Origin: Candida dubliniensis CD36
Taxonomy: Eukaryota > Ascomycota > Pichiomycetes > Serinales > Debaryomycetaceae
Reading direction: 5' to 3'
Length of the DNA stretch: 64,000 nucleotides
Assembly: GCF_000026945.1 (NCBI RefSeq)
Contig: NC_012860.1
Span: 1,550,001-1,614,000, forward strand
The position numbers and the translations under genes are program-made. The notes under the pieces are model-generated. The model saw only the letters and a program-made list of their open reading frames with translations. It was not told where the DNA came from and did not search any database. Positions 39,628 to 61,949 of the stretch are shown piece by piece (position 1 is the stretch's first letter; each line of letters opens with the position of its first letter).

Positions 39628-41430
39628 TTATCTATATCCAGTCATTTTCATATAGGACATCTTAGACTTTTCGTCATTGAATTGGATTTCAATTTCTTCT
39701 TCATCTTCGTCCATTTCTTGTTGCTCATCATCATCTGAAACAACCACCCTTTTCCTTTTATCTACTAGACCAACAGTTTTTTGCTTTCCCGCAAGATTCT
39801 GCAACGGACGGGACGTACTCAAAGAGTGATTTGCAACACGTTGATCGTAATTTTGTAAAGTTCTGATATTTGTATTCCATTTTGCAACTTTCGACTGGCG
39901 ATCCTGTTTAGACGTAGATAATGACTTATGACTAGATGTTTTAACACTCAAATCATGCAACTCCCGTGCTCGTGATTTTTCACTCAGCTTGCTGCCGAAC
40001 GGGGTACTGTTTTGGTTCAAAGACGCACCCGTTGGGTCAAACCCGATATGTGAAAGCATTGTGTTCGTGAACCCCTTGCTCTTCAGATGATCACTCGCAA
40101 ATTTGTCAGTTGCTTCCCTTTTTTTGGATAATTGTAAATTGTTTAACAATGAAGCCGAACCTAATTTCGATAGCTTTTGTTCAAGCATCTCATTTGCCTT
40201 ATCGTCTATTAGTTTCCGCCGTTTGATTTGAGTTTGTAGTACTTTCGGATCCTGATACCTTTTTGGATCAAGAGGCGAACCGTAGCTTGTCCCTATAACA
40301 GTACTCTCTTCGTTATATTGCTTGATAAAGCCCGAACCGCTTTTAGTCATGTACATTTTTTTCTTATCTTTTTGTGGGGATCTAATCGAGACACTTCCAT
40401 TCAATTCCATTCTGGTACTAGACCTAAATTTCATATCCAAATGGATATCGCAAAATTCTTGTGTCCTTGTGTTGATGGCTCTTTTGCATCTGGTGTTGTC
40501 TAGCTTTCTCGTGAACTTGCAAAACCCAAAATCTCTCAACGACCCTATCTCTAAAATACTCGACACATTGGAGTTGTCTACTTTCAAATTGAACCCAGAC
40601 TGAAACTGGGACTTGCCAACTTGTATTTCATACTTGTTAATCAATGGATTTAATATGAACAATAAATCACCCGGTTGGACCTTCCCGTTTTTCTGGAATG
40701 CATTATCGAAAAGCATCAAGTCTACAGAATTCATAAAATTTCCAACCTTCAACTTGATGTATTTGGAGTTGTTGGCAGCAATCTGTATTGGCTCTTTGCG
40801 CAATACAAAGGCAACAAGACACCAATTACAATACTTGGGTTCAGCATAGTTGTTTGATTTATGAGTTTTGGCCAAAAACTTGTCAATTTTAAGGAACTTC
40901 ATGTTGCTATCAGTTTCGGCAATGATTTTAGCAATTTGCGGTTGGGCAAGGTATCTTCTGCGCAAATAAAGTTTGGATATCGGTTCTAGGTCATCAACGA
41001 CGTCCTTCGGCGTATAAGTATACTTTTCCAATTGAAACTCAAACTTCCTCTTACTAAAATCTATTTTATGATCATCTTCTTCACTGACTTTATTACTTGT
41101 CTCGTAGAGCTTGTTTAAAAAACTTGATTCTTTTACCTTGGAATCTCGATGATCCTTCCCGGTAAATAGCCTTTGCTTCGGTTCTTCTGCTACCTTATCC
41201 AAGTGAACTTTAACCTTTTCTGGGGTTCTTGGGATCTCCGGCTGATGCAATTTCTTTTTATTCGGCATGTCTTCCAGTGGTGACTGTGAACGACGTTTTT
41301 TCAAGGCTTTGCTCTTTTTTATTTCTGCATATTTCAACTCAAACTCCTTCACCAAGTCTTTCAATTCATCTGATGAATCTTCTGTTAGCACATCATCAGA
41401 GTCAATCTGTTGGTCCCTGGGGTCATTCAT
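39628..41430 (-). CDS. MCM10: DNA replication initiation factor Mcm10
   Basis: A 600-residue nuclear protein needed to activate the CMG helicase at origins. The conserved core is an OB fold (about 200-290, YCNWCLVAFVLRKEPIQI to GDLLFILNPLINKYEI) followed at about residue 303 by the Mcm10 CCCH zinc finger (FCKFTRKLDNTRC ... EFCDIH). The N-terminus is charged and coiled-coil-like, and the C-terminus is Lys/Arg/Ser-rich with an acidic patch (DDDEQQEMDEDEEE). The set and order of domains match fungal Mcm10. Its start is 200 bp from the divergent COG3 gene. The function is by family; nothing suggests damage. Confidence 0.85.
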   Translation of the reverse strand: MNDPRDQQIDSDDVLTEDSSDELKDLVKEFELKYAEIKKSKALKKRRSQSPLEDMPNKKKLHQPEIPRTPEKVKVHLDKVAEEPKQRLFTGKDHRDSKVKESSFLNKLYETSNKVSEEDDHKIDFSKRKFEFQLEKYTYTPKDVVDDLEPISKLYLRRRYLAQPQIAKIIAETDSNMKFLKIDKFLAKTHKSNNYAEPKYCNWCLVAFVLRKEPIQIAANNSKYIKLKVGNFMNSVDLMLFDNAFQKNGKVQPGDLLFILNPLINKYEIQVGKSQFQSGFNLKVDNSNVSSILEIGSLRDFGFCKFTRKLDNTRCKRAINTRTQEFCDIHLDMKFRSSTRMELNGSVSIRSPQKDKKKMYMTKSGSGFIKQYNEESTVIGTSYGSPLDPKRYQDPKVLQTQIKRRKLIDDKANEMLEQKLSKLGSASLLNNLQLSKKREATDKFASDHLKSKGFTNTMLSHIGFDPTGASLNQNSTPFGSKLSEKSRARELHDLSVKTSSHKSLSTSKQDRQSKVAKWNTNIRTLQNYDQRVANHSLSTSRPLQNLAGKQKTVGLVDKRKRVVVSDDDEQQEMDEDEEEIEIQFNDEKSKMSYMKMTGYR

Positions 41431-41630: not shown

Positions 41631-44162
41631 ATGACTAGAGGTAGAAGCAAATCAATTGTACAAAAGATAGCCAATGATGTACCGAAACTCAACAATTCAG
41701 AAAATGCTTTAGATTACTTGCTAAAGGAAAATGGTGGTGAAAATAACCTTACTCATACCTCTACTACTTACAAAATGTCACGATCCAAGTCTCTCTCACA
41801 AGAGGGTGAGAATAAAAATATAGAGCTGGAGAAAGCCCGTGTTGTGGAATCAATTACATATCCATTTACTAATGATGAATTCCAAAAGATTGAGTATGAC
41901 AACATTAACTCGTACGACTACGATACCATTTTGAAGCCCAGAGATATTTCGCATATCACAGACTTGCAATTGGATAATATTTTGAATTTTAAAAGTATGG
42001 TCCAAAGAAATAAAGTTGAAATTGGATTGTTTGTTAGTGAAACAAATGAAGTTTTGTCTAGTGTCGAAACGCTTTTATCGAAGTACAACAGAATCTCAAA
42101 TGAAACTCTTGATTTCGACAGAAGGGCCAACGAGCTATTGGAATTGCAGAACCTCAACCAGACAAAATACGACGAAATCAATAGTTATTTGCAACACTTT
42201 GAGCAATTGGATTTTATAACGAAAAATTTGTCTAGGTCAGGATCTCATTTGTTGAGCCTGAAAAGAGAGTTTTTCATCGATGTAGTTTTAAGCAAGCTTG
42301 ACACTGCATTGGACTTTATTGCTCAACATCCACAGTTTAAGGAATCTGAAATATATGGCAGTAGGTTCAGACAGTGCATGACTCGTGCCTTGACGTTGAT
42401 CAAAAACTATCTAAACAATGAGTTGAAATCGGTTGCCGATTCAATAAATAAAAAGTTGCACCAAAATAAGTTGGATTCACATTCTGTGAGTTTGACCATT
42501 GATTTATTGATATACAATGAATATAACAGCTATTTGAAATACAATCAGAGCAATTTCAATCAGTTGATTTGTGAAATGCAAAAAAGAGCTCATGACCATT
42601 CAGAATACAACGGGTTGATTGAAGAAGTCTTGAACAAATATTTTGAGGATAGGTTAGTATTATTGAGACAATATATTGATAAAACATCGAGCGTTAACTC
42701 GGTATTTACTGGCAGCAATTTCAATTTGGTTCAGACTTGTCAAGATCAGATATATTATTTTGAAAAGTTAATTGAAAGAGAGTATTTGTTGTTCAACAAA
42801 TTCTTTGTTCCTGGACAATCGGCTGATTATATCGAAAGTGCATTTTATGAGTTTTTGAAGAAAGTTTTGGAACCTTTATACGATGCCGAGAGACTACTTG
42901 TTTTAAAAGAGCTGAATATTGGTAGTTTGTGTCAATTGACAACATTGTTGCAAAAGTACTACGAGTTTGATGACGGCAATTATAGAAGTGACGGGTATTT
43001 AGAAGATGCAAACAGCTCAGTTGTGACAAATGGGAAATCTATCAAGTATGGAGTTTTGTTCCAACCGCTACTAGACGAGGCTCAAGAAAGGTTAATCTTC
43101 AGGGTACAGAATTACGTTGACAACAAATTGATGCATTTCAAACCAAGTGCTCTGGATTTAAAAATCGGAAATACGTTGAAGCGTTCTTCAAATGTAGAGG
43201 ACAAAATAAGCCCTTTGGATGTTGACTACGCTGAAAATTTGTTTCCTGATTTGTATTTGCCATTAGGAAAATCATTGACATTGTTGTCCAATATCTACGA
43301 GCTAATTAACTCAATGGTTTTTGATGATTTGGCACATTATATTGTGCATGCATGTATTGAGCTACTCAAGGGCGGGTTCTTACCTCTCGCAATAGGCCAC
43401 ATGGGCCCTGTCGATGGGCAATTAGTTTATCTTAGTAACTTGGTTATTTTGAGGAATCAAATCAACAATTTTGATATCCAATACACCAGGACTGACTACA
43501 CAATTGATTTCACAAGCGGTTTGAGCGATATTTGGCAGTTGATAAAGGATCGGAATTTTGGCTTTAACAATCGTGGTATTTTAGATTTGGCGTCCAAGGC
43601 AGCACCAAAAATTATTAACAATATGATAGATGCCAACTATGAAATAGAATTTGAGCTTAGAAGCGCCGTAACTCAATTTATCGATGAGTGCTCGAGAACA
43701 ATTTGTTATCCATTGTTGCTGGACGATTTTGATTCTGGTAACCTAGTGGCCGTCACGTCTGCATTCAAAGACAATTTGATCTCGAACATTCCTGTCTATT
43801 ACAGTCGTATTAAGCTGGTGATTAGAGATCCTGTTGTAACCCAATTTTTAATGAGTAATCTATCCGGCTTATTGGTTGCAACCTACGAAGACTTCTACAA
43901 CAAAATAGATGAAAAACTGGAAACGATGGATGTTTTGCTGAAAGATCAGCTAAACGATATCATGGATGTGGATACAACCTATGCATTCATAACCGATATG
44001 ATAGTACAGCTTGGTGATGATAGTGAGTTGAAAAGCAAGGCCAACACTCCAGAATTCAACGAGGAGATCTTAAGTAGTCTACAGCTCGATGAACCCGTCC
44101 CTGCATCTGATTTGGGCAGTAAGCCAGCGTCCCCAAAAACAGGACTTGTAGATCCACAATAA
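41631..44162 (+). CDS. COG3: Conserved oligomeric Golgi complex subunit 3
   Basis: An 843-residue peripheral Golgi tether subunit (Sec34), part of the lobe A Cog1-4 assembly that retrieves Golgi enzymes. The N-terminal coiled coil (about 95-205) precedes IAQHPQFKESEIYGSRFRQC, which matches the human Cog3 block YISSHPNFKD-x-PIYLLKFKQC. VQTCQDQIYYFEKLIEREYLLFNKFF and VDGQLVYLSNLVILRNQI match later Cog3 segments (DGQLFLIKHLLILREQI in human). It is not Exo84, which I considered first. In-frame CTG codons occur, for example at residues 697 and 729, and would be serine. Divergent from MCM10; TFB5 converges 55 bp beyond the stop. Confidence 0.88.
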   Translation: MTRGRSKSIVQKIANDVPKLNNSENALDYLLKENGGENNLTHTSTTYKMSRSKSLSQEGENKNIELEKARVVESITYPFTNDEFQKIEYDNINSYDYDTILKPRDISHITDLQLDNILNFKSMVQRNKVEIGLFVSETNEVLSSVETLLSKYNRISNETLDFDRRANELLELQNLNQTKYDEINSYLQHFEQLDFITKNLSRSGSHLLSLKREFFIDVVLSKLDTALDFIAQHPQFKESEIYGSRFRQCMTRALTLIKNYLNNELKSVADSINKKLHQNKLDSHSVSLTIDLLIYNEYNSYLKYNQSNFNQLICEMQKRAHDHSEYNGLIEEVLNKYFEDRLVLLRQYIDKTSSVNSVFTGSNFNLVQTCQDQIYYFEKLIEREYLLFNKFFVPGQSADYIESAFYEFLKKVLEPLYDAERLLVLKELNIGSLCQLTTLLQKYYEFDDGNYRSDGYLEDANSSVVTNGKSIKYGVLFQPLLDEAQERLIFRVQNYVDNKLMHFKPSALDLKIGNTLKRSSNVEDKISPLDVDYAENLFPDLYLPLGKSLTLLSNIYELINSMVFDDLAHYIVHACIELLKGGFLPLAIGHMGPVDGQLVYLSNLVILRNQINNFDIQYTRTDYTIDFTSGLSDIWQLIKDRNFGFNNRGILDLASKAAPKIINNMIDANYEIEFELRSAVTQFIDECSRTICYPLLLDDFDSGNLVAVTSAFKDNLISNIPVYYSRIKLVIRDPVVTQFLMSNLSGLLVATYEDFYNKIDEKLETMDVLLKDQLNDIMDVDTTYAFITDMIVQLGDDSELKSKANTPEFNEEILSSLQLDEPVPASDLGSKPASPKTGLVDPQ

Positions 44163-44217
44163 AGAAATTGTACAACGCTTATCGTAATATATTTACTATT
44201 TATGAACTATGTTTGTT

Positions 44218-44427
44218 TTATTCCTCTTCAAACGGATTGTATATATTTTTGGATAGTAATCGATTTAGTTCCGATTTAACAAAGTTCACTTTATCATGTT
44301 GAATTAGCAAATGCGTTTCGTCTAATTCCTCTAGAATAATTCCCGAGCTTGAGCTATCAATCTGAATAATCAAAGCTTTGATGGATGGATCACATTGAAC
44401 TAGCACTCCTTTGCTAGCTACTAACAT
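44218..44427 (-). CDS. TFB5: TFIIH subunit Tfb5
   Basis: A 69-residue protein, the smallest TFIIH core subunit, which binds and stabilises Tfb2 and is needed for nucleotide excision repair. The sequence closely follows yeast Tfb5 through KGVLVQCDPSIKALIIQID, ILEELDETHLLI and ELNRLLSKNIYNPFEEE. Length is normal (72 in yeast). The ATG complementary to 44425-44427 gives MLVASKG where yeast has MARARKG. This is the last protein gene before the centromere-like gene-free region. Confidence 0.95.
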   Translation of the reverse strand: MLVASKGVLVQCDPSIKALIIQIDSSSSGIILEELDETHLLIQHDKVNFVKSELNRLLSKNIYNPFEEE

Positions 44428-45645
44428 TGGTGGAGTTGATCTTGGATGAAACTGGTGCTAAGAGATAGGTTATAGGATGAATGTGCAAATTATAGGTGGA
44501 TTTCTAGTATTATTCTCATTTATGTCTAATTAGCTAAAATGCCTGGGACCGATTCTATTTGCAACGGACGGTGATTCGATCAGTTAAAAACCAATTATTC
44601 GAATTTTCAATTACTTTACTTTCTTAATTTTCGTTGAATTTTTTTTTTTTTTTGGTCTATTTTTTCACGAATTTCTTATTAAGATCCCACGAAAAAAAAA
44701 ATACCGCCAACCAAAATTCTTGTACTTGGTGTTCGAGTCCAGATAACCACACCTATCTGGTTCTTAATAAGCCAATTGGCTTTTATTGAAAGCAAACAAA
44801 ATGAGATATTGGATTCTCTGTTCATAGCAATATTTTTTCAAGAATGCATGGTGTATTGCCTTTTCATGAACATGCAGTTCTAGACTAGTTCCAATAAGCA
44901 AATTTACCACAGTATCCAAAGCACTAGTATTTGTCTTGTGACTAAGCAGTAGTATTGCTAATGAGGACATGTGGTAATTAGTTACAAAAATTGCTTTTCT
45001 AAGATGGTTAACTGGTTTTATTCTGATCGTGTGAATTGTTTTCCTGAACCACTTTCTTTTTGCATAACTAGTGTCCAAAAATCAATATGATTATACCCCA
45101 ATCCAGTTTTTCACTAGATTCAAGGCACATCCAATGTAATCTTTTTAGTAAAAAAAAAAAACAGTACGGGGTTTTTAAGCTCTTTTTATATATTGTTCCA
45201 ACATAAATTTTGACAAAATCGTGTAAAATACATACTCGTTCAACACAATAAATGTCTGCCAATCTGCCAACATTGGTAACTGATCCTTGTATAAAAGCAA
45301 TTGCATTTTACGTGTTACTGGTCCTTGTACTACTTCTCTTGTGCTAGCAGTGTTCTCAACAGATCTTTTCCATTTTTAACCCTACCAGTCCTTGTTAAAA
45401 CGTCGCCCACGTATTTCTTTGATGCTATACTGGCATACACTATTCTTTCTGCACCTCATCAAGGCTGAGACGGTACCAAAACTTGAATTTGCTGATGTAC
45501 AATCAAAAACTTGTTTTGACTTGATAGGTCTTGTTACTCTTCATATCTTCCCTATTCTTTCTCACAATCTGGAGTAAAAATGCTACCAAGTTGACCTTTA
45601 CATCTCTCTAAGATCAATCCTCATGTGAATTCTACGCAACATTGA
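44428..45645. promoter_or_regulatory. Gene-free flank between TFB5 and the left inverted-repeat arm
   Basis: About 1.2 kb. The first few hundred bases would include the TFB5 promoter and have T and A runs (44640-44655, 44690-44700). Small frames up to about 105 codons have biased composition and no motifs. A GTTCGAGTCC string near 44732 resembles a tRNA B box but has no matching A box or fold. Confidence 0.5.
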
Positions 45646-45994
45646 GAGCATACAGAATACAGGTATACTGGTTTGAGTTACACGTTATTGTCATAATGAG
45701 TATTTTAAAGATGTGTTGGTATATTCTGATTTATGCTGGATGCAGTCTTTTTATTGCATCCATGGTTAAACGAAGCCTTGCGACCAACTCTATTATTTCC
45801 AAGAGCTGTTCATGTCGTAATTAGATAAGCTGAAAGTGACACGTTGTCTACTGCAAGCCAGATTAACAGAACGTGAGATCCATGGAGAGCAATCATTAGA
45901 ATACAACACCCAGCTTAGTTGTCGAGTCAGGTGTCACTAAACATGTAAATATTTAGTACCAGTTTTTGTGTGAAAAATTGATCAAATTATCAAC
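45646..45994 (+). repeat. Left arm of a long inverted repeat
   Basis: About 349 bp that reappears in reverse complement at 52847-53195 with only a small number of substitutions over most of its length. Matching segments include CAGAATACAGGTATACT at one end and CAGTTTTTGTGTGAAAAATTG at the other, the similarity fading over the last dozen bases. It is non-coding in all frames. It bounds the skewed core on its left side and resembles the inverted repeats that flank some Candida centromere cores. Confidence 0.93.
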
Positions 45995-48128
45995 GATATG
46001 CAATACAATTCCACTGACACACTCCTATCACCCCAAATTTTGATAACCATTTCAGCTGAACACAAGACTACTGCCTCATTCATATCATAAAAAATCTAAA
46101 AATAGTCCTTTTCTTAGGCCCCCCAATAAACAACAATCAACAATTTCTGCTCCTCATGCCATTACATTTACAGATAGTCATACTACAAGCCTGTCAACCC
46201 CATATGAAAAAAAAACTTCTTACAAACCAGTTCACGTTGCAACTGGCACAACTCCAGCAAACATAAACATCCCCTAAAAAAAAGCCTACATACATTTTAA
46301 ACGCTTGACATTCTCCTGCTCAACAAATTCAAAAGTTAGCTCATTTGCGAATAAGGTGATACCCACTTAATAAAAACGTACACCTTCGGCAATAAATTCT
46401 TCTTGCTTATACTCGCCTTTTCTTAATCAGGGAGATCACTTACATACCACAATAAACACCAAGCTCTTCCAAACTAAACAAAGCAATCTCGAAACTGACC
46501 TCTTTCTTTCAATAACTAATAAACGATTTGGAATACCCACAAAGTCACAAATTATACAGCAAAACCTCCTACAAAATCAATGATATCAACATTTCAAACA
46601 GGAACAAAAGAAAATCGTTTGTATCAATTGATTCTCTTCCTAATACAAACTAAACACCTTGTAATTAGTTCTTATAACCAAGAATAACTAAACAATACAA
46701 AAGCTACCAAATATTATCACGTGACCAAAGCTAAATGTCCTATCTATCCCCCCTCCGAAATCACATAAATCTGAACAGATCAGGCAACACATGACACCTA
46801 AGTTAGACTTGCAAGTAGTAATATCGGCCAACCATTTGGTACTTCACACAGCACCAAACTAAAACAGACTATATGTGAACGCTCTACATTTCTTACCTTT
46901 CATGAACACGTCAATCCAAGGAATAGAATCAACATTCCACTTATGCTATGAAACTTGACTCTTAAAATACTATCACTTCCCCCTTACCTCATGTATACAA
47001 GAAGCCTTAAAAACACTATTTCTTTTTCACAAATGCTGCAATCAACTAGAATTGCTAATACCCCTTTTTAAACGTGACACGCTCAAACATACCCACCTAT
47101 AAACATCACATAAAAATGAAACAGCATTCACTAAAGCAACCATAAAACCGAACACACTCATAACTTAACTAATACACTTCCTTCATCAAAACACTCAATT
47201 GCTAAAAAAGAACCAACTAATGAAATTGACTCAAAACAAAAACTAATCAGACCGATTCTTTAGATAAATCTTAGAATGTCCATTTCCTCACGCAACTTTT
47301 CCATACTCCTTGACAATTATTCTAGTACCAGTACTTCGGCATGAAGAAGTCTCTGATGGTCCCCGGACGTCAACTGCAAAAACAAGGAAAGTCGCCTAAA
47401 TCTTGTAAAGCGCTCAACTCTTTACGACAACTCATCTCTTCGACAAGATCAAAAGAAACGAAAACAACGAAAACCAGTAATGCTTTGCCTATCAATACAG
47501 AAAAACAAACGTCACTGTTTCAACAAAAGCCACAGTCTAAAAGCCTTAAATGAACCTATTGTGCGTTGCAATTTCTTTACCATTCTTTCCTTGTCTTCCT
47601 ACCAACCAGTGTTAAACCATGCCTGTCTCAAAACCTCATTTTTGAAGCATCTTCTATAGTAAGACTCTCCTGTTTCACACTAATTAGCTAGACAAAAGTT
47701 ACACTTTACTTCTTTATGTATACTCTGTTGATCAGCTTCCCATTATGGTGATTTTCAGAAAAAAAGCGATATATAATAATTTTTTAAACTTTCACAATAA
47801 AAGAAATATTGTTTTGACATCACTTCAATTAAATTGGCTTCTAGCTTTAAAGTTCCTCAGCTTGTAGTAAATACCCTGCTGTTGCCTATCACTACTTAAT
47901 TCAGTCACATTCCTAAAGGCATTTCAATACAACATCATTCCAAAGCTAAAACTATAATAAACTACTACTCTACAAGCGGACGGACTTGCTCGGGTCAACA
48001 GCTCAAATAAATTCCACAAGTAATAGTATAGCATGACAAACATATTCATGAACACCAGAATCGGGTGCATCTAAGAAGGGTTTTACTTTAATCATAGTTT
48101 TTTAGATGCAGCAATTGGTATCAAGGAT

Positions 48129-48149
48129 GTATATTGGAATTCAATATAC
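48129..48149. repeat. Near-perfect 21 bp palindrome at the skew switch
   Basis: Arms GTATATT and AATATAC flank a centre containing GAATTC. It lies within about 100 bp of the point where C-excess changes to G-excess, so it is a candidate landmark at the middle of the core. Confidence 0.6.
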
Positions 48150-51100
48150 CATAAGAATTAGACCGAAAAAACTACAGTTTGACTTTACTCGACACTTGCG
48201 TATATTTTCTTAGAATATTCAGTTTGCACAACAATTTAATTATCAAAGCAGGATTCGTGCTGACTATAGGTGATAAACCCTACTGAGGTCAGGAAAGCTA
48301 ACAAGTTTTTCCTACTATCCGTATTTGACGGGTGCAAGGTTATATTGTAAAACTGGTATAACAAAAGTGGCCCTATCAGTATTGTTAATATTTAGTTTGG
48401 CAATGGTTAACATAGTTGTATTTATTGTATTTTGATTGGGTCAATCGAAACGAACATATGAGATGCTTCATTTGCTTTGCTCAACAAGTAATCATTTCAC
48501 TGCTTAATGCAGTATTTGATTCTATTTTAAAGAATTGGGCCCGCAGAGCTGCCAAACTTAGTTTACGTCTGTAAAAGATTATGTGTTGATTTGTATGCTA
48601 GTGTTTAGGCTCGTTGACTTTTCCACATAAATACTATATTAGTTCTTAGTCATTATAGCAGTCACACAGTATCGCATTGCGATCTTCTCCTTTCTTTTGA
48701 TTGTGTTGATGATATGCAGAAGCTTAAAAAACTAAATATTCTTATCACCCTTGTGTTGATGCGAAGACAATAATTCATATTACTTTTATAGTTGGGATTT
48801 GCAATCTCATAAACACTTTTGATTCAAGTTAAAGAGGTAATGAAGTAAGAGTCTGACTATTGGAGTAGGGAAATGGTTTTGCTGTATTTGGCTATATTGT
48901 TTCAGTTCTAACATGAGCGTATTGATAGCAGTGTATTTGTGATATAGGAGACTCTAGGTGCCATTTTGTGCTTGTTTATGTAGAGAATTACTGATGATTG
49001 TGTGAGGGCATATAGATGCACTTTATTGAGAATCGATGTTGAGAATAAAGTAAAGTTTGGGTAGCATTATCTTGTTAAAAGTTGCAGTGCATTGTACGAG
49101 GTAAGCTCCAATGATGATCTGGCGAGGTTTATAGATATTGCTCAAGTCTGCTTGTGTCAGGAATGCTTCGTTTTGTTGGGATATGATTTCCAATGATTCT
49201 GAGCCTGGTGCAGTTGGGCAACCTAAATGAATTGATGGAGGTGGGTTTGAAGTTGTCTCGGATCAGTTGCAAGCGATTATTTAGAGATGCCGGTTATCGT
49301 TTGGTAAAAGTAAGACATGATTAACACGGTATGAATTGATAGCTTGTGTAATGCTTGTATCGTGGAAAAAAAATGGGAGGTGAATGAGTTTTAACAAAGT
49401 CTTTGTAATTTATAAAGTTGAAGTTCACTGTTTTATATGTTTACTGTTTTGAGACTGTTGGAAGGTAGGGGATACGTTATTGGGATTTAGTTTTTGGTCT
49501 CGCCATAGTTGTTATTGTTGTTGTCAGTTTAGTGGATGCTTCAAAACTGGAAGGACTAGATTGTTTGGTTTTGATTGAGTTCTCTTTGTGGGTACTGTAG
49601 GTTTGCTATTGATGATGATTATAGAACAAGATTTTTTGACAAAGAGTCAAGGATGTCTTATTAGTGTACAAGAGACGTAGTCAGGTCAAGGTTGATTGAT
49701 TGTAGTTAGGATTGCTATATTGTATTGTTAGAATATTTTTTTGTCCAGTTGAAAGTGAGCACTCATTGTGATCGATTGAATAGCTTATATTTGAAAAGGA
49801 TTTGAAGACTAGGACTGTTCTGCCGAGATGATTGTGTGTGAGAGAATATGGAAGGGGCGCTGATTAACAAGTAGGCTGAAAAACTATATGTTGTTGTTAG
49901 TATTGGTGGGGATGAAAGAGGAATGAAAACTTCAATACGTGGTCTCCTTCGACGTCAGACGACATGAGATAGAGTCAGTGGTATATGCAAAATTGAGGAA
50001 GGTTTGCCAAGTTAAATAGTATATGAAGATGTTTGACTGATAATCTTTCTACAGATACAAAGGTTTAGTGTCATGATTCATGTAGATGGGATATATTTAT
50101 CATTGCCTCAAAGTGGATTATCCTAGTGTGTTTGCATTTGAAGAAATGGAATTAGAGTTTCTTACCAGTGGGAAGTAGAAAAAGCACTTACTAGATGAGA
50201 CAATTTGCGCTTTACTTGAGTTTATAGAGTTATGAGTGCATTGCGTGAATGAATGTCATTGAAATAGTCACTCGGTTGTTGGCAATTATTGGTTACTATG
50301 TGTTTTTCCGATGGCAGAGTTATAGTGGTATTGTATGAATGATTCAAATCTGTCACGTAGTCATGTCAACATGGAGGGAGGGTTCCCCAGACAGATTGAA
50401 TCTGACCGTTAGATAATATAGTAACTTAGGCTTAACCTATTTTATATTGGTTTAGACAACAAGAATTTGCAGAATATATTGATCGCAAGCGAAGCACGAA
50501 ATGACGCTTAGATGTCTAACTAATTCCCCCATTCGTTGGGAGATTTGCTACATAAATAGAATAGCTGCACTTCCCTTTACTATTATATACTTATTGGATA
50601 GGGTCTAGCTGGTTTTAGAGGACAATGCGAAGTGACAATTCAATTTCTGGTTGCTATATTCAATTGGTGAGCTATAGAGCGTATTTGAGAGATAAGGGGA
50701 ATGGTGGTCGAACAGACATTGTTTCATTTACATTGGTTAGATCAATGTCCACTTGAGCTGAATTGCTCGGCTGTGTGACAATCAAGCCCTAATATTTTCT
50801 GTTAGTAGGAATATGCCCAGATTTAAAATTCAGGACATAGTGAATCTCAGAAATTTTACACTTAGATCTCAGAAGTCGTAAAATCTAACTAAGACTAAAG
50901 CTTGTAAACAACTGACAGTGCTTCAGATACCAAACTTGGAAAAATTACGTGGAATCTATTGGGGATGAACAATGGTTCAGCACTATTAAAAGATTACACG
51001 GAGCCTCGGACCAGTTCATCATTAAAGCGTTTGCCATTCTTGGTAACACTAAATATACAGGGAACCACACCAACTCGATAGCCGGTGGTAATATCAAATG

Positions 51101-52091
51101 AAGTAAAAAAAAGTAAATGATAGAGGAAGTTTTTTTTTTCGTCAACTGGGAATGTTTGTTAGAGAGTAGGTTTCAGGTTAATTTACCCCACCCGGATGAA
51201 TTGTTTTCTGCTCGACTCTCCATGTCCACAGTGAAAAATTTTCATGGAGAAGAATATTTTCATTGGGAGATTGAAGTGTTGGAGAATAGAGAGCGAGCAC
51301 CTGGTATTCCCAAGGTATAATTAGATTGAAAGAGTTATATTAGTCATATTACTTTTGTACTTAATCAGTAGATTTTCAAGTTCTTAGTATCGTCTACCTG
51401 CATTGGCTTGTTTAAGAGATATTAAGTGGTGTTGTACCTGTGACATTCAGAAGTTACTGTTTAGTGCACCTTGGCAACCGAAAAGGGAATTTAAGCTGGG
51501 CTTTGGGTGTGGTTGTTTGACACGTGTAACAATGTAAAACTTTTGGTAAAGCAAATGTAAGGATCGACAACTAGTGTCTTGATTGATAATTATGTAAACC
51601 ATAGAGATTTGTAGTAAAAAGATACTCTACTACTTAAGTACTCTCATGAGACGACTAGATATCTATGATACAACGTGTTATCATAATTAGCTATTCGTGA
51701 GGGCACGTCTACTACCTAACAAGTAGTGTGTAAATGATTTAATACAAACAGATGTTAAGCTAGAATCTATTATTCCAACCGATGACAAATGTAAAGAAAG
51801 GAACAAGTCCAAACGCAAGTGGAATGGCTCGCTAATTTCTGATTATAGCATTCACAGATTGGACAAAATGCGATAATCAGTAACTCCTACATTCAGGTTG
51901 TCGAGCTTATGTTTCAAGTTCAGCTGACATATTTGGTCAAATACCGTAACCCATGGACAATAACTGCTTTCTAGAAATTTGGTATCTTGGGTCTGTTACA
52001 CTTCTTAGTGCTGCGTTGTTGATGATGCGGATTATCATAGTCTCTAAGTAATGATTCTTCGGTCAGTAAGTGGTGGTGTTAAAAAAAAAAA

Positions 52092-52220
52092 TGACTGAAA
52101 CGAGATTCGAACTCGCGCCCACTTTCGTAGACCAGGATTGTTATGGTAAAGGTTTTGCAGTAAATTTTTCAATTTAGCTGACTCCTTACCCTGGCGCCTT
52201 GACCGCTCGGCCATCCAGTC
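52092..52220 (-). tRNA. tRNA-Leu(AAG) with intron
   Basis: Read on the minus strand from 52220. The acceptor stem GACTGGA pairs with TTCAGTC before discriminator A at 52092, and the D arm is GCCGAGCGGTCAAGGC. The anticodon stem is CCAGG with CCTGG, with loop T33 and anticodon AAG at 52187-52185. A long variable arm follows, and the T arm is GCGAGTTCGAATCTCGT with a consensus B box. An intron of about 46 nt (52138-52183) begins one base after the anticodon, the usual nuclear tRNA position. The long variable arm and A73 fit leucine. With A34 changed to inosine it would read CUU, CUC and CUA but not CUG, as needed where CUG means serine. A T-run terminator follows at 52081-52090 (A run on the plus strand). 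Confidence 0.93.
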
Positions 52221-52846
52221 ACGTGAGTAAACTTGTTGTGTATCGTACGTGATATAAAAGAAACTTGTTCAAATTAAAATATAAAAGTTATATAAAGGTT
52301 TAAAGGAAATTAGGACCCTTTAAATAGACCGAAAATTAGAGTGATGAGATCTAACTAATTAATTAATATCAAGAAGTCGGGAACGAACTTCTTGGCAAAA
52401 TCACCGAAAATAGAAATAGATAAATAATATAGACGACGAATCGTCAAACCAATAAACAAACAATATTAATAAAAGTAATATCAACCGAATCGGAATGATC
52501 AGGAAGGGTTGAATATGCATCAAAACTTTTGAATGTCGAGTTCACTAATTGAGTAAGTTTGAACTCTTTTAATTAAAAGCACAACTGCTATTATGCTAAT
52601 AGCTTTACTACAGAGTTTGAGACTAACTTTCAAAGATAGTCGTGTATGACATTTGTTAACAGTTCCAATTAAGTCCTGAAATATTTCACTAGCAAGTTTT
52701 ATGTTACCAGTATAATTTCATTTATAGTTAGTCAATCTATTATTTTATCGTCTAAACAACTGCTACTTGTATATGTGTTTAGTAAATATTGTTTTGAAAA
52801 GACTTAGGTACATGGGTTACTGGAAGGAACAAATCATAGAATTTTT

Positions 52847-53195
52847 GTTGATAATTTTAGCAATTTTTCACACAAAAACTGGTACTAAATATTTACATGT
52901 TTAGTGACACCTGACTCGACAACTAAGCTGGGAGTTGTTTCCCAATGATTGCTCTCCACGGATCTCACGTTCTGTTAATCTGGCTTGCAGTAGACAACGT
53001 GTCACTTTCAGCTTATCTAATTACGACATGAACAGCTCTCGGAAATAATAGAGTTGGTCGCAAGGCTTCGTTTAACCATGGATGCAATAAAAAGACTGCA
53101 TCCAGCATAAATCAGAATATACCAACACATCTTTAAAATACTCATTATGACAATAACGTGTAACTCAAAGCAGTATACCTGTATTCTGTATACTC
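52847..53195 (-). repeat. Right arm of the long inverted repeat
   Basis: Reverse complement of 45646-45994. Differences are scattered single bases plus a small cluster (CATTAGAATACAAC on the left against CATTGGGAAACAAC on the right). The arm lies about 630 bp outside the tRNA-Leu gene and about 2.4 kb from the end of the skewed core, so the two arms are not equidistant from the switch point. Confidence 0.93.
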
Positions 53196-56100
53196 GCCTT
53201 TGTTGCTTAAAACCTGAAAAGCGTGCAGAGAAATATAAAAATGTGTCAGCAGAACCAAAGTATACAGTAGATACAACTTGTCATAGGTTAAGAATGAAGA
53301 GCATTTGGGTAAAAACTACCAGCATTCATCCGGGTAAAGTGTTGGGAGTGGATAGCATCGTTCACTCACACAACAAAAAAAAAAATATCAGAAAAATTTT
53401 TTCATGTCGTTGTTTTCTTTTCCTTTTTCTTTTTCTTTCTTCAAAACTGAACCTCCTACTTCTGCCCCACATTCAGACTTCTGTTGAATAATGGGTTCTG
53501 GTGAAGGAGCAAAGCAAGCTATGTGGTGACCTTGGATCCGTTGCGTGGCTTAGTGCTCATTAAGTAAGATCCTTGAGCCCGATCGGTCCCACTACAGTTG
53601 AATATTTCAAGATCATGAATAAGCAAAGAGTTACTTGGAGAACGCAGTATTTTTCAGAAACAAATGTATATGATTATTGGAGGAAAAATAAGAGACTTTA
53701 TTGTTGGTGTATTACGCAGATTCTGCTCTTGAAGTGTTCTCCTACTTATCCAAGCTCCTATCCTATAGCAGTAATTATCGAGGAAAGTCGCACGAGGCGT
53801 TATTAAAGATAAGCCCGTCTATTTTTTGCGTTTTCTCACAAGAAAGTTGTGATGTAGTGGATAGAGACATGTCGAATTACCCTAATAACCAAGTTCAAAA
53901 AATTGGAATTATATGTCTTAAATTCTCTAATTCAAAACATGTATGGCATTGAAATTATTGTAGTAGATTGAAAGAATCTGATTAGACATTTTTAAAGTTC
54001 TATAGCTGTATAAAAGAAGAATTGGTTGATTGTTCATGGCTATCTTGCGAAGAAATAGTCTTTACCTGTTTAAGCTCCCCCTAGTGGAGAGATAAAACAA
54101 ATAGAAAGTCATCTTAACACTCATTGATAGAGCTTGCAGTACTTGTGCAATTAATGAGCACAACAATTCACAGATAGTGTCAATTTAGCCATCACAGGAA
54201 TTCCACATAGTAGCCAGGCATAATAATCTATCAACAATCTTTTTGAGTTGAGACTTTCAAGCTAAACGAGAATAAATAACATTATATGACACCTGCCCTG
54301 AATGGTAATCTATCTCAAATAGAATCTCAATTAAAGATTGAATCACCCATAGAAGAACTTTAAACTGAGTCACTTTTATAGACAAATTCATCTAAGAAAC
54401 ATTCATTTATGTGAATAGTAAAAAACACTCATTAGTATAATCTGCTAATAAAGTTATTTTATGCGAATTCTTCAAATTCAAGCTCGTGAGTAAATCCTCT
54501 AGATATAATAGAAGACTTGAAACGTAATGGTATGGTAAATCTGCTTGCAACATCTTCTTGACGACAAAAAGTTGAAAACCTGTTTTTGGAAACAAAGAAT
54601 TTAACCCGAAATCGTGATTGACAATAAAAAGAGCGGAGGAGGAAGAACAGCTTCTTCTTCTTGACTCAGCAAAATTTTCCACCTTGTTTGTGATGGTACG
54701 ATAAAATAACGCAAGTCGGGAAATGTTAATTTAGTTTCTATTTATTGGCCACCAGCTACTTAGATGCATTGGGTCTAGCTTTGTACGTCAGTTGCAGAAG
54801 GAAACTTTTCCCGAAGTTCTGCCGAAACACCAAAGATAAAAAAAAACCATTGAATCTTGTGGTGAAGCTGCCCCCACTTTAATGCACTATTACTTTCATG
54901 CTTCTAAGATGATGTCAATCATTTATATTACGAGTCAGTCACAAAACATTCTTTGACGAAAATAATTTCTTCCATTATCTCTAACAATTAGCACTAAAAC
55001 TGAATTATATCATTGTGCTTGGTTTTCAAAACAAGTTCAGGTTTGTCAAACATTAATGATGCATCGTTCTCAAAATTCTCACCTTTATCATCATCGTTTC
55101 TGAATTAAAAACAGTTTAAGCAAGTCTACTTTATGCAGAAATAAACTCACACTCCCGCTCCTCCCCCAAAGATTCTTGATTGAATACAAGTGGTCCGTAA
55201 AATGTTGTAGTCCCAGAAAAAAAAAAAAAAGAATCACGCCATATCTTCTACAAACTATCGATTTCTTTATGCTACCCCCCTTTCGTATATGTGCGAGAGA
55301 AAACGTCAATTAATTTAAAGATGGTTGATGTGATAACGTAAAGTACTCTTTATCAGTTTCCGAAATTAAAGCCGTGTTTATTTTCTATAAATCAAGAACA
55401 ATTCTATACATACGTGCATTACATTTTCTATCCTTGAAACTTTGTTTATCTGGTTGAAAATTTTCATTTGATAAAATATTGTTATTCTGAGAATAGCACT
55501 TCAAATGATTTTGTATTCTAATTCCAGTTTGAGCCTTTTTCTGTGTTTTCTCGGGCTGTACAAATTCAAGCCTAAGACTTAGTTGTTTTGTGTTTAAAAC
55601 CACAAAACTTCACATATGAAACTAAGGCAGGTTGATTTGTTCAATGACAAAGTATGTGTATTTGTTTTATTTTTAGACTTGGTCCGAGATTGCAAATATA
55701 AGCTTCACTCATGTGGAGCAACGAATCTCAGACTAGAAAACGTTTTTGAAATTGCAGTCTATAATACAATCGTAAACCCTTGAAATAACCGTTGGATGTA
55801 TCAAAATGAACCATACAATAAAACGTTTTATTTAATTGAACGATACTTTATTTTGCTAGTTGTAAAATTAATCATCCCACTGACCATATCTTTTGTATTT
55901 CCCTAAGTCAATTTCAGAGCTTAACAAGGATTAATTGCAACACCTATTTTGAGAAAAATGCTGATTATCTCCGGGAATAAACAAAGCCACCATACTGTCA
56001 ATTTTATATGTATTGCAATTTCTGGAATTGGAATAAAACCAAACAAATATCCAAAAAAAAAAAACAAGCACTAATCAAGAAATAATTAATACAAACTAGA

Positions 56101-59100
56101 ATGTGGTTTTTATTGGAGTAGTAATTTTATATAAAACTATCTTCTCTATCCAACCCTTTTTTTTTTTTTATTTTTCAACAGAGTTAACAATAAACTGAAT
56201 AGTTATGCCACAAAACTAAGTTGCAGCCAAAATTGCATGATATGACACAAAACCTTAGATCTGACAAGTTGATGCAAAGTTACTTATGTGTAAAATATAT
56301 CGCCCGAAGTTTTTAGTCAAGTTCCCACGCAAAAAGAAAACAAGCACAAACAAAAAACTTTCTTCACTTGTTCAATCATATGCATTCAAAGAAATATAGA
56401 CAAGTACAAATGAATTGATAGCTCCATTTAGTTTGTAGTTCTGAGTAGAAACAAAAAGAGAAAGTTTAAAAAAAATATTATGGCTTCTTACGTAAGCGCA
56501 AGTTTAAATACTCTCTTGTGATGATACCTCGACCACCAAGCGACACACCAATATGTAGTCGCTACTCAGTATTAATTAGGAGATTTGAGAATAAAAATTA
56601 ATAGGTTCTCATACTGTCCAGTAAACACTCAGTTATACAGAGAGCAATAATTGAAGAATACCTATTTTACTTGGATGCTGTTTCTTCCCCAGTAACACCA
56701 ACGAACCGCCAAGGATAAAAATGACCATAATCCCAAATTCAAAAGGGAAAACAAAGGGTAGTTTTAAAATATTAAAAAAAATTTTTGTTTTATTTTAGAT
56801 TTAGTTAAATATTATTTTTATCCAAAGCATTATAAGAGTCAGAATGTTAGTGCATTGAAGTGTTAGCACAAACCAGGAATAAAACCAACGGAGTTTTTTT
56901 TTTTATTATTGTGAAATGACTCAAGCGGTCAGATAAAGTTATAATACACTAGACCAGATTAGGTCATATAGGTATTTAGTTTTGGGGGAGACTTTCTTAT
57001 AATTTGGGAGAAGAATAATTCTACCTTTATTTTTATTAGCAACATTTACAATGATATGAAATGGTTTGGCTCTGTAAAATGGAAAATAAAATAAAGCAAC
57101 ACGAAATTTCCATAGTTACTAACTACATTATCTATAAAAAGAAACTTGCAAAAGAAGTCAGATTTTGGTTTGTTTTCGAGTATTGTGTATTATGTGAAAC
57201 TTGAAACAATAAAGACCGTCAAGAATAATATCAAGATCAGCAAAATTTCATTCTCAAGGCTCTCGAAAGAGAAACTTTTTGCTTAGTGGCTGAAAGTAAA
57301 CAATGAATCAAATGCTGCCGCAAACAGAGTATGTTTATTCTAAGCCAGGTTTCAAGTTCACAATGACGAATTTTTTTTGCTTCAATTCAACATTTTCTTG
57401 AAGCACAAACCATAACATCATGTTACCCAGAGCCTCAGCTCAAGAATCCTAAAATATAGTTGTCTAATGTAATTAGGTTACATTTTTTATAAGCCAAAAA
57501 ACACAAAATTCTTAATTTAAAACATAACGACTTTTACTTGAAGAACAATCACGAGATCCTAATGGGGTGACTGAGAAAACTAAGATTCTGGCTTCAATGG
57601 ACACTACATTGGTGTAAACTGTGTCTAAGTGGTATCACTTTTCTTGCTATGCAGTAACTTTCATACTGGTGGTTCTATTCCGTCAAGCTCTCTTGGTGCC
57701 GTTGGTTCGACTCGCCAACAATATCGTAACACAAATAGATCCTCCAGTTTATTTTGCTTGGCACCTATATAGGCCTCGCAGTAGATTATTATTGTTTTGG
57801 TTTTGTCACATATACGAAAAGTAGAAGGAAATAGAAGGATAAAACTGTGCAGCTTGTAAAGAAAGAAAATAATCTTATGATTTAAGTAGGTTGCATGAAA
57901 ATGAAATTATACATATGAGGACTTTTATAGTTAATTACCATAACTTATGACAAATTTACGTGACTTTAAGGAAAACCCTTTCTGTTTGCCGCATCGATGT
58001 TTGGCGTGCTAGTCACATGCTGTGCATTGTCAAATTGAAAGTTACAATATCGTTAGTCTTACCGAGGTTGTATACATACACAGATCTCTATTACAATACC
58101 ATCTTATAAATTGGGTAACAAGCATTAAAAGATAACAGTTATCAAAGAAGAATCCCCTCCCCCCTAAAAGAGAAACAATAATAATAAAGTGGAAGGGCGG
58201 GTCAAGTATCTAGAATTCAACAAATCCATTGTAATCTACAGAATTGAATTGTAAATATGATATTATAATTTGCTGAGAGAAGAAAAACAATAAGAGTATG
58301 CAATATGAAAAATCTGGATTTATTTTTATGATCTCTTATCTTGCCTATATTCTTCCTCCAGTGTAAACTTCGGAAATATGAAACAGGCGTAATTCCAGTC
58401 TTTTGCTGATTATTGAACGCCTGATAGAATGATTCATGGTGGCTCCAAGATATAAGGAAAAGCTTGGTATTAATATGGCTTTTATTAGAAGGTCAATAGA
58501 GTAAACTGAATAGTTTGGCAACTGCTTTAGGACTTGTCAAAGATATGAACAACAAGAAGAAAAATTTATCTCATTTACACTTGTCCAATATCTTCTTACT
58601 CTATTTTTCTCGATACAGATGAAAGTTCTTAGTTGTTAGTAAACTATGTTGAGTTTTGCTAACAGCTCCAATTAGTAATCCAAATGAGAATATTATTTTG
58701 GCCAAATAATAAGAAGAAGAGGAGGAGGAAAAGAGCACTATCAAAATCTTCAATACGTTGGAGATTCTTTACTCGCCGTAACCGCAACTTGTCTTACTCA
58801 TTGAATAATTAAAGAACAAAGTAAAAAGAAAAGAAAATACTAAATGATACAAAAAGGAAAAGCGGAATAGATAGGAGGTATATTGCATTGTATCACAATT
58901 ACTACTATGCTAAGCGCCCTCCAATAAAACCGTATTATTAAAAAATAATTTATATCAGAGGGAATATAACAAAAAAAGGGCACCTTAATCATTTAAAAAT
59001 AACTTCTCTTCAAAGAAAATAAAATAGACTTACAGATTATCAACCTACCAAGAGGGAAACTTGTTGAATTAATAAAAGGCAAAAAGAAAAAGTGACTAAA

Positions 59101-59141
59101 AAACCGAATTTAATACCACACCACACCCAACACTCCTGGTG

Positions 59142-59159
59142 CCCTCCCCCCGCCCCCCC
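59142..59159. repeat. C-run pair (potential G-quadruplex on the minus strand)
   Basis: CCCTCCCCCCGCCCCCCC lies in an otherwise AT-rich stretch. On the minus strand it gives three adjacent G runs of 7, 6 and 3, enough for an intramolecular quadruplex if the longer runs split. Confidence 0.5.
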
Positions 59160-60593
59160 GCAACACATACACTTCAATATTACAACACAAGAATGTAATG
59201 CTTTGAGTATTAGTTTGCCTTTAGAATAACATCCGGTAGTCCTTCTTTATTAATTGACAACTAAGTAAACCTACAACAGTATTGCAAATCTTTTTGTCTT
59301 GATAGCGGGACAGTCTCTTACAACTTACAGAAGCACCTACAATTAGTTTTTCTAATTAAAGCAATCCAAGCATTGTGGGGAAAAGAGTTCACACATCTTA
59401 AACAATTTATTGGTGATAAATTGCCATTCCTTGAAACAATCACTATTATGCGCCACGTTCACCTTAAGGAGTTCTTATTCTGGTAGCTCGTTCCCAATAT
59501 ATAATATTTTGGTGGATCTTGCTTTAATATTATTTTTATTTGACCATCAAACAGGAAGATATGGGTTTGATTTGATGGAAATATAATAAAATAAAATAGA
59601 ACAATAAGAAAAACCAAGAGATTTTGGTTCTATAATAATAATAATAATAGTATTATTATTTTAAATAAACCCTTGTGACAAATAGAACTTATGATTAAGA
59701 CTTATTCTACTATTGTTTGATTGGTACTTTTTATATCTGTGTAATCCTCTTATTTGCTCTCCACAAAAGTCTTAACAATCTTTAGCTACAGATAAATTGA
59801 AATTAAATATATACTATGGTTGAAAAAAATGTGACAGGACTAGTTTGCTTTTTCTTGTTCTAATATCAACTAAAAGAAACAAACACAATAAAGTTAAAAT
59901 CCATTTTTAAAAGGACAAATTGGTATTGTGAATACTTTTTTGCTGGTAAGAATTTCGGTTATTAAAGGAGATAAGGCTAATTTACTTCCGAAACGTGGTT
60001 GCATCAGTTTTTATTGTATCATACCCTTGCTTGAGGTCACATCATTTTACCGAACTTAATATTAGATGTAACATAGTGATAAAAGCCCCTCCAAAAAGAA
60101 AAAAAAAAAAAAAAAAGAAAAGGAAAAAGAAAAACTGACAGCTGTTGATGTCAATGTTCAAGATACGGTAGACTGATTCTCGTTGCGAATACTACGGTTA
60201 TGAACAAATTTAATTGTACGATTTACAACATTATTTTGCAGTTATTTCTTCTTCTCAGGCCAAAAAAAAAAAAAAGAAAGAGGATCACACCAGAACCTGA
60301 TTAGAGAGATCCTTGAAAGATATAAATATTAATGAATGAATACAATGAACATGGCCCGAGAAATATAGTGTAAGAATAGATTAAATCAAGCAAAGCTGCT
60401 TTATCTATGCTCCCTCCCCTCCTCATCTAGATTATTGCTAATATAATTTCTGCTTCCATAGCAATTTTCACATCAATAGAATCGTTAACCAATTTAGCCA
60501 GAGTAGACATGTGTTTTTCCTGCATCCCATACTACATTATTTATCAGTTTATATTATATTAATCTATTTTAATTTCTTTTTTCTTTCTTGCTT

Positions 60594-60628
60594 CCCATCG
60601 CCCATCGCCCATCGCCCATCGCCCATCG
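60594..60628. repeat. (CCCATCG)5 tandem repeat
   Basis: Five exact 7 bp units, followed by a partial TCCCTAG. It stands out as GC-rich in the long upstream region of RME1, about 1.3 kb before the chosen ATG. Confidence 0.95.
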
Positions 60629-61384: not shown

Positions 61385-61440
61385 ACTACTACCACCACTA
61401 CCACCACCACTACCACCACCACTGCCACTACTACTACTTA
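61385..61440. repeat. ACC/ACT trinucleotide repeat tract
   Basis: Imperfect CCA/CTA triplets in the RME1 5' region, continuing into TTA/TAT repeats (61438-61452). It is non-coding, about 450-500 bp upstream of the RME1 ATG. Confidence 0.8.
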
Positions 61441-61506
61441 TTATTATTATAATAAAAAGAATCGAGAATTTTAAATCTTGTACATAAATACCCTGTATTT
61501 CCCTTA

Positions 61507-61514
61507 TATATAAA
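61507..61514 (+). promoter_or_regulatory. Candidate TATA box of RME1
   Basis: TATATAAA, about 380 bp before the RME1 ATG. Other TATA-like runs occur at about 61064 and 61154, so the choice is uncertain. Confidence 0.35.
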
Positions 61515-61889: not shown

Positions 61890-61949
61890 ATGTTTTCTTA
61901 TAATTTAGAGTCCAATAATGCAGGTTATTTAAATAATCATCATAGCCTT

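What the first reader, a model, noticed from the sequence alone, without database searches (positions are those of the whole stretch)
45960..50400. Sharp GC- and AT-skew reversal in a gene-free core: centromere and replication origin
The plus strand is C-rich and G-poor from about 45.96 to 48.0 kb, then G-rich and C-poor from about 48.06 to 50.4 kb. Counts from four 60-base lines: 14C/5G and 16C/4G on the left, 4C/19G and 3C/14G on the right. With no genes present, transcription cannot explain it. The sign (C excess on the left, G excess on the right) is that expected for bidirectional forks leaving about 48.05 kb over long evolutionary time. Early, constitutive origins with such skew have been reported at C. 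albicans centromeres. The two halves are almost equal, about 2.1-2.3 kb.
Basis: partly seen in the sequence, partly recalled or inferred. Interest (0 to 1): 0.85.

Follow-up and report, generated by a model that had tools for sequence, protein, structure and literature searches.

The report
Yeast centromere core with strand-bias flip
This gene-free stretch looks like the chromosome 1 centromere of a Candida yeast, and its two halves carry mirror-image base biases, a known feature of these centromeres whose cause is still disputed in print.

Summary
GC skew is -0.41 from 45,990 to 48,050 and +0.32 from 48,050 to 50,350; AT skew flips the other way. The flip score is 0.342, against at most 0.111 in 200 dinucleotide shuffles. 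By inference the locus is CEN1 of Candida dubliniensis: 8-contig 14.6-Mb genome, 17.7-kb gene-free gap, pericentric inverted repeats, COG3 and a zinc-finger gene as neighbours. Using neighbouring genes as anchors, after some misses, I found one flip of this sign on each of the 8 contigs.

It is not new: Koren et al. 2010 (PMC2924309) reported it for all C. albicans and C. dubliniensis centromeres. The origin reading is disputed: PMC3459929 finds the opposite leading-strand sign in C. albicans.

What I add: the GC flip is a ramp of about 1.4-1.8 kb, not a point (AT is inconclusive). Arms are about 2.3 kb whatever the gene-free width (13 of 16 arms). Sequence context matters little. Forks leaving one point origin do not explain this well. 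I favour a strand-polar mutational process confined to the CENP-A core, most likely tied to replication starting there. Converging forks remain possible.

The parts
44163..61889 (.). gene-free interval (17.7 kb) between COG3 and a zinc-finger gene
   Evidence: ORF list under code 12 and Pfam; two ORFs of 114 and 105 aa inside have no Pfam match
45990..48050 (.). left skew arm: + strand C- and A-rich (GC skew -0.405, AT +0.148)
   Evidence: likelihood fit; shuffles
48050..50350 (.). right skew arm: + strand G- and T-rich (GC skew +0.319, AT -0.105)
   Evidence: likelihood fit
47180..49080 (.). transition zone: best GC-ramp width 1,900 bp (CI 1,300-2,600), ramp centre 48,130
   Evidence: ramp beats step by 10.5 nats at this centromere
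45646..45994 (+). left arm of pericentric inverted repeat, 349 nt, 97% to the right arm; its inner end coincides with the left skew edge
   Evidence: (two copies found in the genome)
52847..53195 (-). right arm of the pericentric inverted repeat
50350..50791 (+). decayed copy of a dispersed repeat, probably an LTR remnant (inferred), beginning at the right skew edge
   Evidence: about 60% identity to ~465-nt copies beside CEN3 and CEN6 under lenient scoring, alignment; 24 matching stretches listed genome-wide
50792..52090 (.). weak tail of the right arm (GC skew +0.132, boot sd 0.040)
52092..52220 (-). tRNA gene; the match spans 129 nt for a 71-position model, so probably with an intron
   Evidence: Rfam RF00005, 40.4 bits; ARAGORN, bacterial settings, found none
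41631..44162 (+). COG3, left flanking gene
   Evidence: Pfam COG3_N and COG3_C; Candida COG3 relatives
61890..63440 (+). C2H2 zinc-finger gene, RME1-like by position (RME1 name recalled)
   Evidence: zf-C2H2, E 3e-4, below Pfam's cut-off
39628..41430 (-). MCM10-like gene
   Evidence: zf-primase and MCM10_OB

Best explanation
The interval is the core of a small regional centromere, CEN1 of Candida dubliniensis (inferred). The flip is a mutational footprint, not a functional motif. Over long times a strand-polar process acting inside the CENP-A (Cse4) core enriched one strand in G and T on the right and the other on the left. It switches within a central zone of about 1-2 kb and stops about 2.3 kb out on each side. 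Most likely the polarity comes from replication starting constitutively and early within the core, dispersed over the central zone or wandering over time, and the effect is confined because CENP-A chromatin mutates faster or leaves more single-stranded DNA. Shown here: the flip, the GC ramp, the confinement, weak context dependence, recurrence on 8 of 8 contigs. Taken from papers: ORC and early replication (C. albicans), CENP-A width. Inferred: species, the CENP-A link, the cause.
For: Fit and shuffles. The same sign of GC and AT flip at one locus on each of 8 contigs (CEN2). Cross-matches between the eight regions were dispersed repeats, LTR-like sequence or flanking genes; 46,000-50,400 had one match in the genome. 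Half-widths average 2,333 bp (sd 542) in 13 of 16 arms and do not clearly track gene-free width (2,258-13,840 bp; Pearson r 0.05, Spearman 0.28, p 0.35; without the CEN1 right outlier r 0.26, p 0.42); 9 of 13 arms stop at least 1 kb before the nearest ORF counted. At CEN1 the gene-free DNA from 52.2 to 60.7 kb has GC skew -0.021 (boot sd 0.025). Plateau composition on the G-rich strand is A .281 C .112 G .249 T .358 (n 22,800); context effects on the C/G asymmetry are small beside the overall bias. At CEN1 GC content is 0.35 in the arms against 0.32 in noncoding flanks. ORC at the switch, a bubble at CEN5 and earliest replication in C. albicans (PMC2924309, section read); CENP-A occupies 3-5 kb in C. 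dubliniensis (passages).
Against: PMC3459929 reports the opposite leading-strand bias in C. albicans and rejects a replication cause (section read). PMC3998917 reports passive replication and termination in the CEN7 core (passages). A GC ramp (pooled gain 45 nats over a step; 33.6 without CEN2) does not suit one fixed origin; AT is mixed: a step is preferred by 6-8 nats when the switch is free, a ramp by 5.7 nats when it is fixed at the GC centre. Some edges coincide with repeats or genes rather than a chromatin limit (CEN1 left and right, CEN3 right, CEN7 right). Koren 2010 also mentions one non-centromeric skewed site in C. dubliniensis (passage), so skew alone does not prove a centromere. 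CENP-A was not measured here.
Confidence: 0.5

Rival explanations
1. Converging forks. Origins at the outer edges of the core send forks inward; they stall at the kinetochore and finish in a broad central zone. With A/C-rich leading strands, as reported genome-wide for C. albicans, this gives C/A excess on the left and G/T excess on the right.
For: The sign fits the A/C-rich leading strand of PMC3459929 (section read). PMC3998917 inferred origins beside CEN7 and CEN5 with forks ending over the ~3-kb core (passages). Centre GC ramp with flat outer plateaus. Noncoding AT skew in the flanks suggests A-rich leading strands if forks leave the CEN region: left -0.032 +- 0.012, right +0.026 +- 0.009 within 8 kb as far as fetched (simple counting errors, too small if neighbouring bases are correlated).
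Against: Flanking GC skew does not reverse: left -0.048 +- 0.018, right +0.026 +- 0.013, the same signs as the arms. With a free switch AT fits a step better than a ramp. ORC averages at the switch and a bubble was seen at CEN5 (PMC2924309). The CEN7-flanking sequences failed as plasmid origins (PMC6403455, passages).
Confidence: 0.2
2. Transcription-linked bias: divergent non-coding transcripts from the core centre leave the displaced strand G/T-rich, or convergent ones act through the C bias seen at fungal gene starts.
For: Transcription-associated GC skew occurs in fungi and is large in C. albicans (PMC3315797, passages); the 61-63 kb decline in this window sits at a gene start. A centre ramp could be scattered start or end sites. 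Two other cores have an ORF of 146 and 232 aa inside a skew arm (CEN2 right, CEN4 left).
Against: No ORF of 100 aa or more in the CEN1 core. Genes beside C. albicans centromeres show reduced expression and a marker placed there is weakly repressed (PMC4871872, passages). Similar amplitude and width at eight different sequences would require the same transcription pattern at each.
Confidence: 0.17
3. Plain fork asymmetry from one fixed origin at 48.05 kb, without any special core process.
For: Reported at all centromeres of two species and read as a constitutive origin (PMC2924309, passages).
Against: Forks leaving 48 kb should also skew the gene-free DNA from 52.2 to 60.7 kb, but GC skew there is -0.021 (boot sd 0.025). 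GC ramp at the centre. Opposite sign to the leading-strand bias reported for C. albicans.
Confidence: 0.08
4. Chance or a compositional oddity of this one locus.
For: None found.
Against: 200 shuffles give at most 0.111 against 0.342; recurrence on 8 of 8 contigs.
Confidence: 0.01

Closest known systems
C. dubliniensis and C. albicans centromere skew (Koren et al. 2010, PMC2924309, Fig. 3D and S9, legends seen)
   Same: GC skew negative to positive with AT skew opposite, within about 3 kb each side, at all centromeres of both species; this locus is almost certainly one of those plotted (inference)
   Different: the ramp width, the comparison with gene-free width and the context test were not in the passages and section I read
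Small regional centromeres of Candida (3-5 kb CENP-A in a 4-18 kb gene-free region; PMC7263194 and PMC4741521, passages)
   Same: gene-free 17.7 kb, unique core, pericentric inverted repeats reported for CEN1, CEN5 and CENR
   Different: CENP-A not measured here; repeats at CEN3 and CEN6 are copies of a dispersed element
Replication-associated skew at S. cerevisiae origins (PMC3459929, section read)
   Same: strand bias that switches sign
   Different: there the jump is about 9% and fades over ~20 kb, with A/C-rich leading strands; here each arm has about 30-40% and ends near 2.3 kb
Bacterial oriC GC skew (recalled)
   Same: negative to positive flip with leading-strand G and T excess
   Different: bacterial skew continues to the terminus; here it is confined to a few kb

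Membership tests
Candida small regional centromere | gene-free region of 4-18 kb | tested here: met
   44,163-61,889 without a recognised protein gene; a tRNA lies inside
Candida small regional centromere | Cse4/CENP-A on 3-5 kb | not testable with these tools
   no ChIP data; only the skew width, 4.36 kb, matches
Candida small regional centromere | core sequence unique to the chromosome | tested here: met
   one match for 46,000-50,400 in the genome; at CEN1 cross-centromere matches start at 50,350, at the edge. Repeat copies do lie inside arms of CEN3, CEN4 and CEN5
Candida small regional centromere | inverted repeats at CEN1 unique to it | tested here: met
   349 nt, 97%, two copies found genome-wide
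Candida small regional centromere | conserved position relative to C. albicans CEN1 | tested here: inconclusive
   orf19.4439 lies beside CEN1 (PMC4871872 table); RME1 = orf19.4438 is recalled; the zinc-finger match is weak
Candida small regional centromere | GC/AT skew flip at each centromere | tested here: met
   8 of 8 contigs near anchor genes, after misses at first guesses on C4, C5, C6 and C8; whole chromosomes were not scanned
Constitutive bidirectional replication origin at the switch | ORC binding or initiation at the switch | not testable with these tools
   reported for C. albicans only
Constitutive bidirectional replication origin at the switch | abrupt sign change at one point | tested here: inconclusive
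   GC: ramp preferred, 45 nats for 8 CENs, 33.6 for 7; 20 simulated step sets gave no gain on a coarser grid. AT: step by 6-8 nats with free switch, ramp by 5.7 with fixed switch
Constitutive bidirectional replication origin at the switch | skew persists or fades slowly along the fork path | tested here: not met
   GC skew -0.021 in gene-free 52.2-60.7 kb; 9 of 13 arms stop 1 kb or more before the nearest ORF counted
Constitutive bidirectional replication origin at the switch | sign matches the genome's leading-strand bias | tested here: inconclusive
   flanking noncoding GC and AT point opposite ways; PMC3459929 says opposite for C. albicans

The most novel reading that the evidence does not exclude
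The skew does not mark an origin but a permanent fork-collision zone. Forks enter the CENP-A core from both edges, stall at the kinetochore and finish in the central 1-2 kb, and repair of the exposed single strand (for example dC insertion opposite lost bases) writes a G/T-rich strand. The centromere would then be a replication terminus readable from sequence alone. This would reconcile the reported A/C-rich leading strand, the 2D gels of PMC3998917 and the centre GC ramp. Three literature searches showed no paper proposing it, judged from listings (in full, with 10 of 24 listed) and from the papers named here.
Probability: 0.18. Interest if true: 0.75.

Novelty: already known. Interest (0 to 1): 0.35.

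Why it matters
These centromeres have no shared core sequence, so a base-composition pattern that recurs on all eight chromosomes is one of few sequence-level clues to how centromere position is inherited. Whether it records an origin, a fork-collision zone or a chromatin-limited mutational process bears on the proposal that early replication timing marks the centromere. The shape measurements here (GC ramp, roughly constant width, weak context dependence) give features that any explanation must fit.

Tried and rejected
Shared pericentric repeat as a centromere-specific element: copies beside CEN1, CEN3, CEN5, CEN6 and CEN7 looked promising, but a genome search with the CEN3 copy listed 24 matching stretches (some copies in two pieces, the query included) on all 8 contigs, so it is a dispersed, probably LTR, family. 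The more diverged CEN5 and CEN7 copies were not in that list.

Skew edges set by repeats: fits CEN1, but at CEN5 and CENR the edges fall inside the repeat arms. An idea that conversion between inverted arms would cancel skew was wrong on reflection: mirrored arms keep mirrored skew.

Sharp outer edges as evidence for edge origins: pooled steps beat 300-bp ramps by 17.5 nats over 14 edges and 7 of 14 are best at zero width, but CEN5 right prefers a ramp (CI 500-1,700) and several edges sit at genes or insertions, so I give this little weight; I did not refit without the gene-side edges.

Sign test in the flanks: inconclusive. Motif-carried skew: hexamers seen 25 times or more are at most 2.5-fold over base-composition expectation.

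First guesses for other centromeres that showed no comparable flip: C6:470-490 kb, C8:449-459, C4:847-857 and C5:1,016-1,026, C4:827-847. A_deaminase as a CEN3 anchor failed. Text searches for CdCEN and for CEN1 with RME1 (no paper) gave nothing used.
Full report
OBSERVATION. The window is G000:C2:1,550,001-1,614,000 of an unnamed 14.6-Mb genome in 8 contigs. The 1-kb profile shows GC skew of -0.466 at 46-47 kb and +0.449 at 49-50 kb, with AT skew of opposite sign. The best flip score in the window is 0.342, the next best elsewhere 0.135, and 200 dinucleotide shuffles reach at most 0.111. The cumulative curve has a second, slightly deeper low near 63 kb, where a gene start lies.

WHAT IT IS. 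The flip lies in a 17.7-kb gene-free interval between COG3 (41,631-44,162) and a C2H2 zinc-finger gene (61,890-63,440, weak match); an MCM10-like gene is next to COG3. COG3 is 91% identical to an unnamed cluster of 343 members and then 61% to Candida maltosa (7,996 candidates scored). Inverted repeats of 349 nt at 97% flank the core, found twice in the genome. PMC4741521 reports such repeats at CEN1, CEN5 and CENR of C. albicans and C. dubliniensis (passages); for C. albicans other papers list CEN4, CEN5, CENR (PMC7292649, section read) or CEN1, CEN4, CENR among those with short ones (PMC7263194, passages). PMC4871872 puts orf19.4439 beside C. albicans CEN1 (table in passages). The contig lengths fit chromosomes in the order R, 1-7 as I recall their sizes. 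I read this as CEN1 of C. dubliniensis. Species, RME1 name and contig order are inferences; orf19 gene names used to choose anchors were recalled.

ALL EIGHT. Using anchor genes (ORC4, ALS, TOM40-like porin, TrkH, ribosomal L3, FA hydroxylase, carnitine acyltransferase) I found a flip of the same sign on each other contig: switches near C3:1,944.8 kb (1-kb zero crossing), C4:873.8, C5:1,030.7, C6:497.5, C7:1,004.9, C8:436.9 and C1:1,718.3. Several first guesses missed. Whole chromosomes were not scanned; by eye L034, L035, L039, L040, L041, L048, L049 and L051 hold no comparable two-sided flip. Koren 2010 mentions one non-centromeric skewed site in C. dubliniensis (passage), which I did not look for.

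SHAPE. With the switch position left free, a ramp fits GC better than a step at 8 of 8 centromeres (gains 2.1-18.4 nats; pooled 45 nats near 1.4-1.8 kb). The CEN2 breakpoints there were set by hand; without CEN2 the pooled gain is 33.6 nats at 1.4 kb. Twenty simulated sets of true steps gave no gain on a coarser grid. AT skew is weaker and mixed: a step is preferred by 6-8 nats with a free switch, a ramp near 1.2 kb by 5.7 nats with the switch fixed at the GC centre. So the ramp rests on GC. In 13 of 16 arms (CEN2 both arms and CEN7 left were dropped because of coding or transposon DNA) the half-width is 2,333 bp (sd 542), while the gene-free half-width ranges from 2,258 to 13,840 bp; Pearson r is 0.05 and Spearman 0.28 (p 0.35). 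Without the CEN1 right outlier r is 0.26 (p 0.42) over a narrower range, 2,258-4,890 bp, so a weak link is not excluded. For these distances I passed over ORFs inside arms or repeats (CEN4 left, CEN5) and the two short ORFs right of CEN1, and CEN4 right is limited by the end of the fetched stretch. Nine of 13 stop at least 1 kb short of the nearest ORF so counted. At CEN1 the tail from 50,792 to 52,090 has +0.132 and 52.2-60.7 kb has -0.021 (boot sd 0.025). Outer edges are mostly steps (7 of 14 best at zero width), but some sit at genes or insertions.

BASES. On the G-rich strand the arm plateaus hold A .281, C .112, G .249, T .358 (n 22,800; central 700 bp each side and repeats left out, one copy of the CEN5 and CENR repeats kept). 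Against CEN1 noncoding flanks at GC 0.32, G gains most, C and A lose, T changes little. Context changes the C/G asymmetry only slightly (for example TCT -0.30 +- 0.10, CCA +0.33 +- 0.15, CCC +0.64 +- 0.26 in log2). This looks like a general strand-specific mutational bias that gains G; dC insertion opposite lost bases is one candidate (inference only).

LITERATURE. Author names other than Koren, Burrack and McLean are recalled. Koren 2010 (abstract, passages and one section read) described this pattern at all C. albicans and C. dubliniensis centromeres and read it as a constitutive early origin, with ORC at the switch and a bubble at CEN5. PMC5035033 (Burrack 2016, passages) found no consistent inversion at neocentromeres, which fits a slow footprint rather than a requirement. 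PMC3459929 (Marsolier-Kergoat 2012; passages and one section read) argued that the skew is too strong, too short and of the wrong sign to be replication, since leading strands in C. albicans are A/C-rich. PMC3998917 (Mitra 2014, passages; the word skew does not occur in it) reported flanking origins and termination in the core; PMC6403455 (Bijlani 2019, passages) found the CEN7-flanking sequences not to act as plasmid origins. Padmanabhan 2008, the C. dubliniensis centromere paper, is not held, so what it says of shared repeats is unknown to me.

MECHANISM. The confinement to a roughly fixed width is hard to explain by fork polarity alone. I therefore favour a process tied to the CENP-A core, with polarity from replication starting in it. 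Converging forks would fix the sign problem and the ramp, but flanking noncoding GC does not reverse (left -0.048 +- 0.018, right +0.026 +- 0.013), while flanking AT does (left -0.032 +- 0.012, right +0.026 +- 0.009) (simple counting errors). The sequence alone does not decide.

VERDICT. The added shape data make the open question more testable.

Noticed in passing
window 61000-63000: Strong one-sided C excess on the + strand (GC skew to -0.48) over the 5' region and low-complexity start of the zinc-finger gene; fits the C bias at gene starts reported for fungi (PMC3315797, passages).
   Followed up: partly
window 50350-50791: Decayed copy of a ~465-nt dispersed repeat, probably a solo LTR; better preserved copies lie beside CEN3 and CEN6, and 24 matching stretches were listed genome-wide.
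   Followed up: yes
window 52092-52220, - strand: tRNA gene found by Rfam but not by ARAGORN under bacterial settings, probably with an intron. No Rfam match in the 12 loci around the other centromeres that I scanned.
   Followed up: partly
L052 3222-3685 with L050 1627-2090; L038 1161-1402 with 7219-7466: Inverted repeats at CEN3 (464 nt, 97%) and CEN6 (248 nt, 72%), beyond the CEN1, CEN5 and CENR repeats listed in PMC4741521; both are copies of the dispersed repeat.
   Followed up: partly
L042 from 2433 to L045 829 (C8:428433-434829): Apparent LTR retrotransposon with identical 516-nt direct repeats and a long open frame beside CEN7. Unmasked noncoding DNA left of the CEN7 skew edge still shows GC skew -0.121 +- 0.050 of the arm's sign, as if the arm had been split; part of that stretch is itself repeat.
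   Followed up: partly
L044 378-2370 and L052 1162-3181: About 2 kb beside CEN2 and beside CEN3 are 72% identical, probably paralogous genes next to two centromeres.
   Followed up: no
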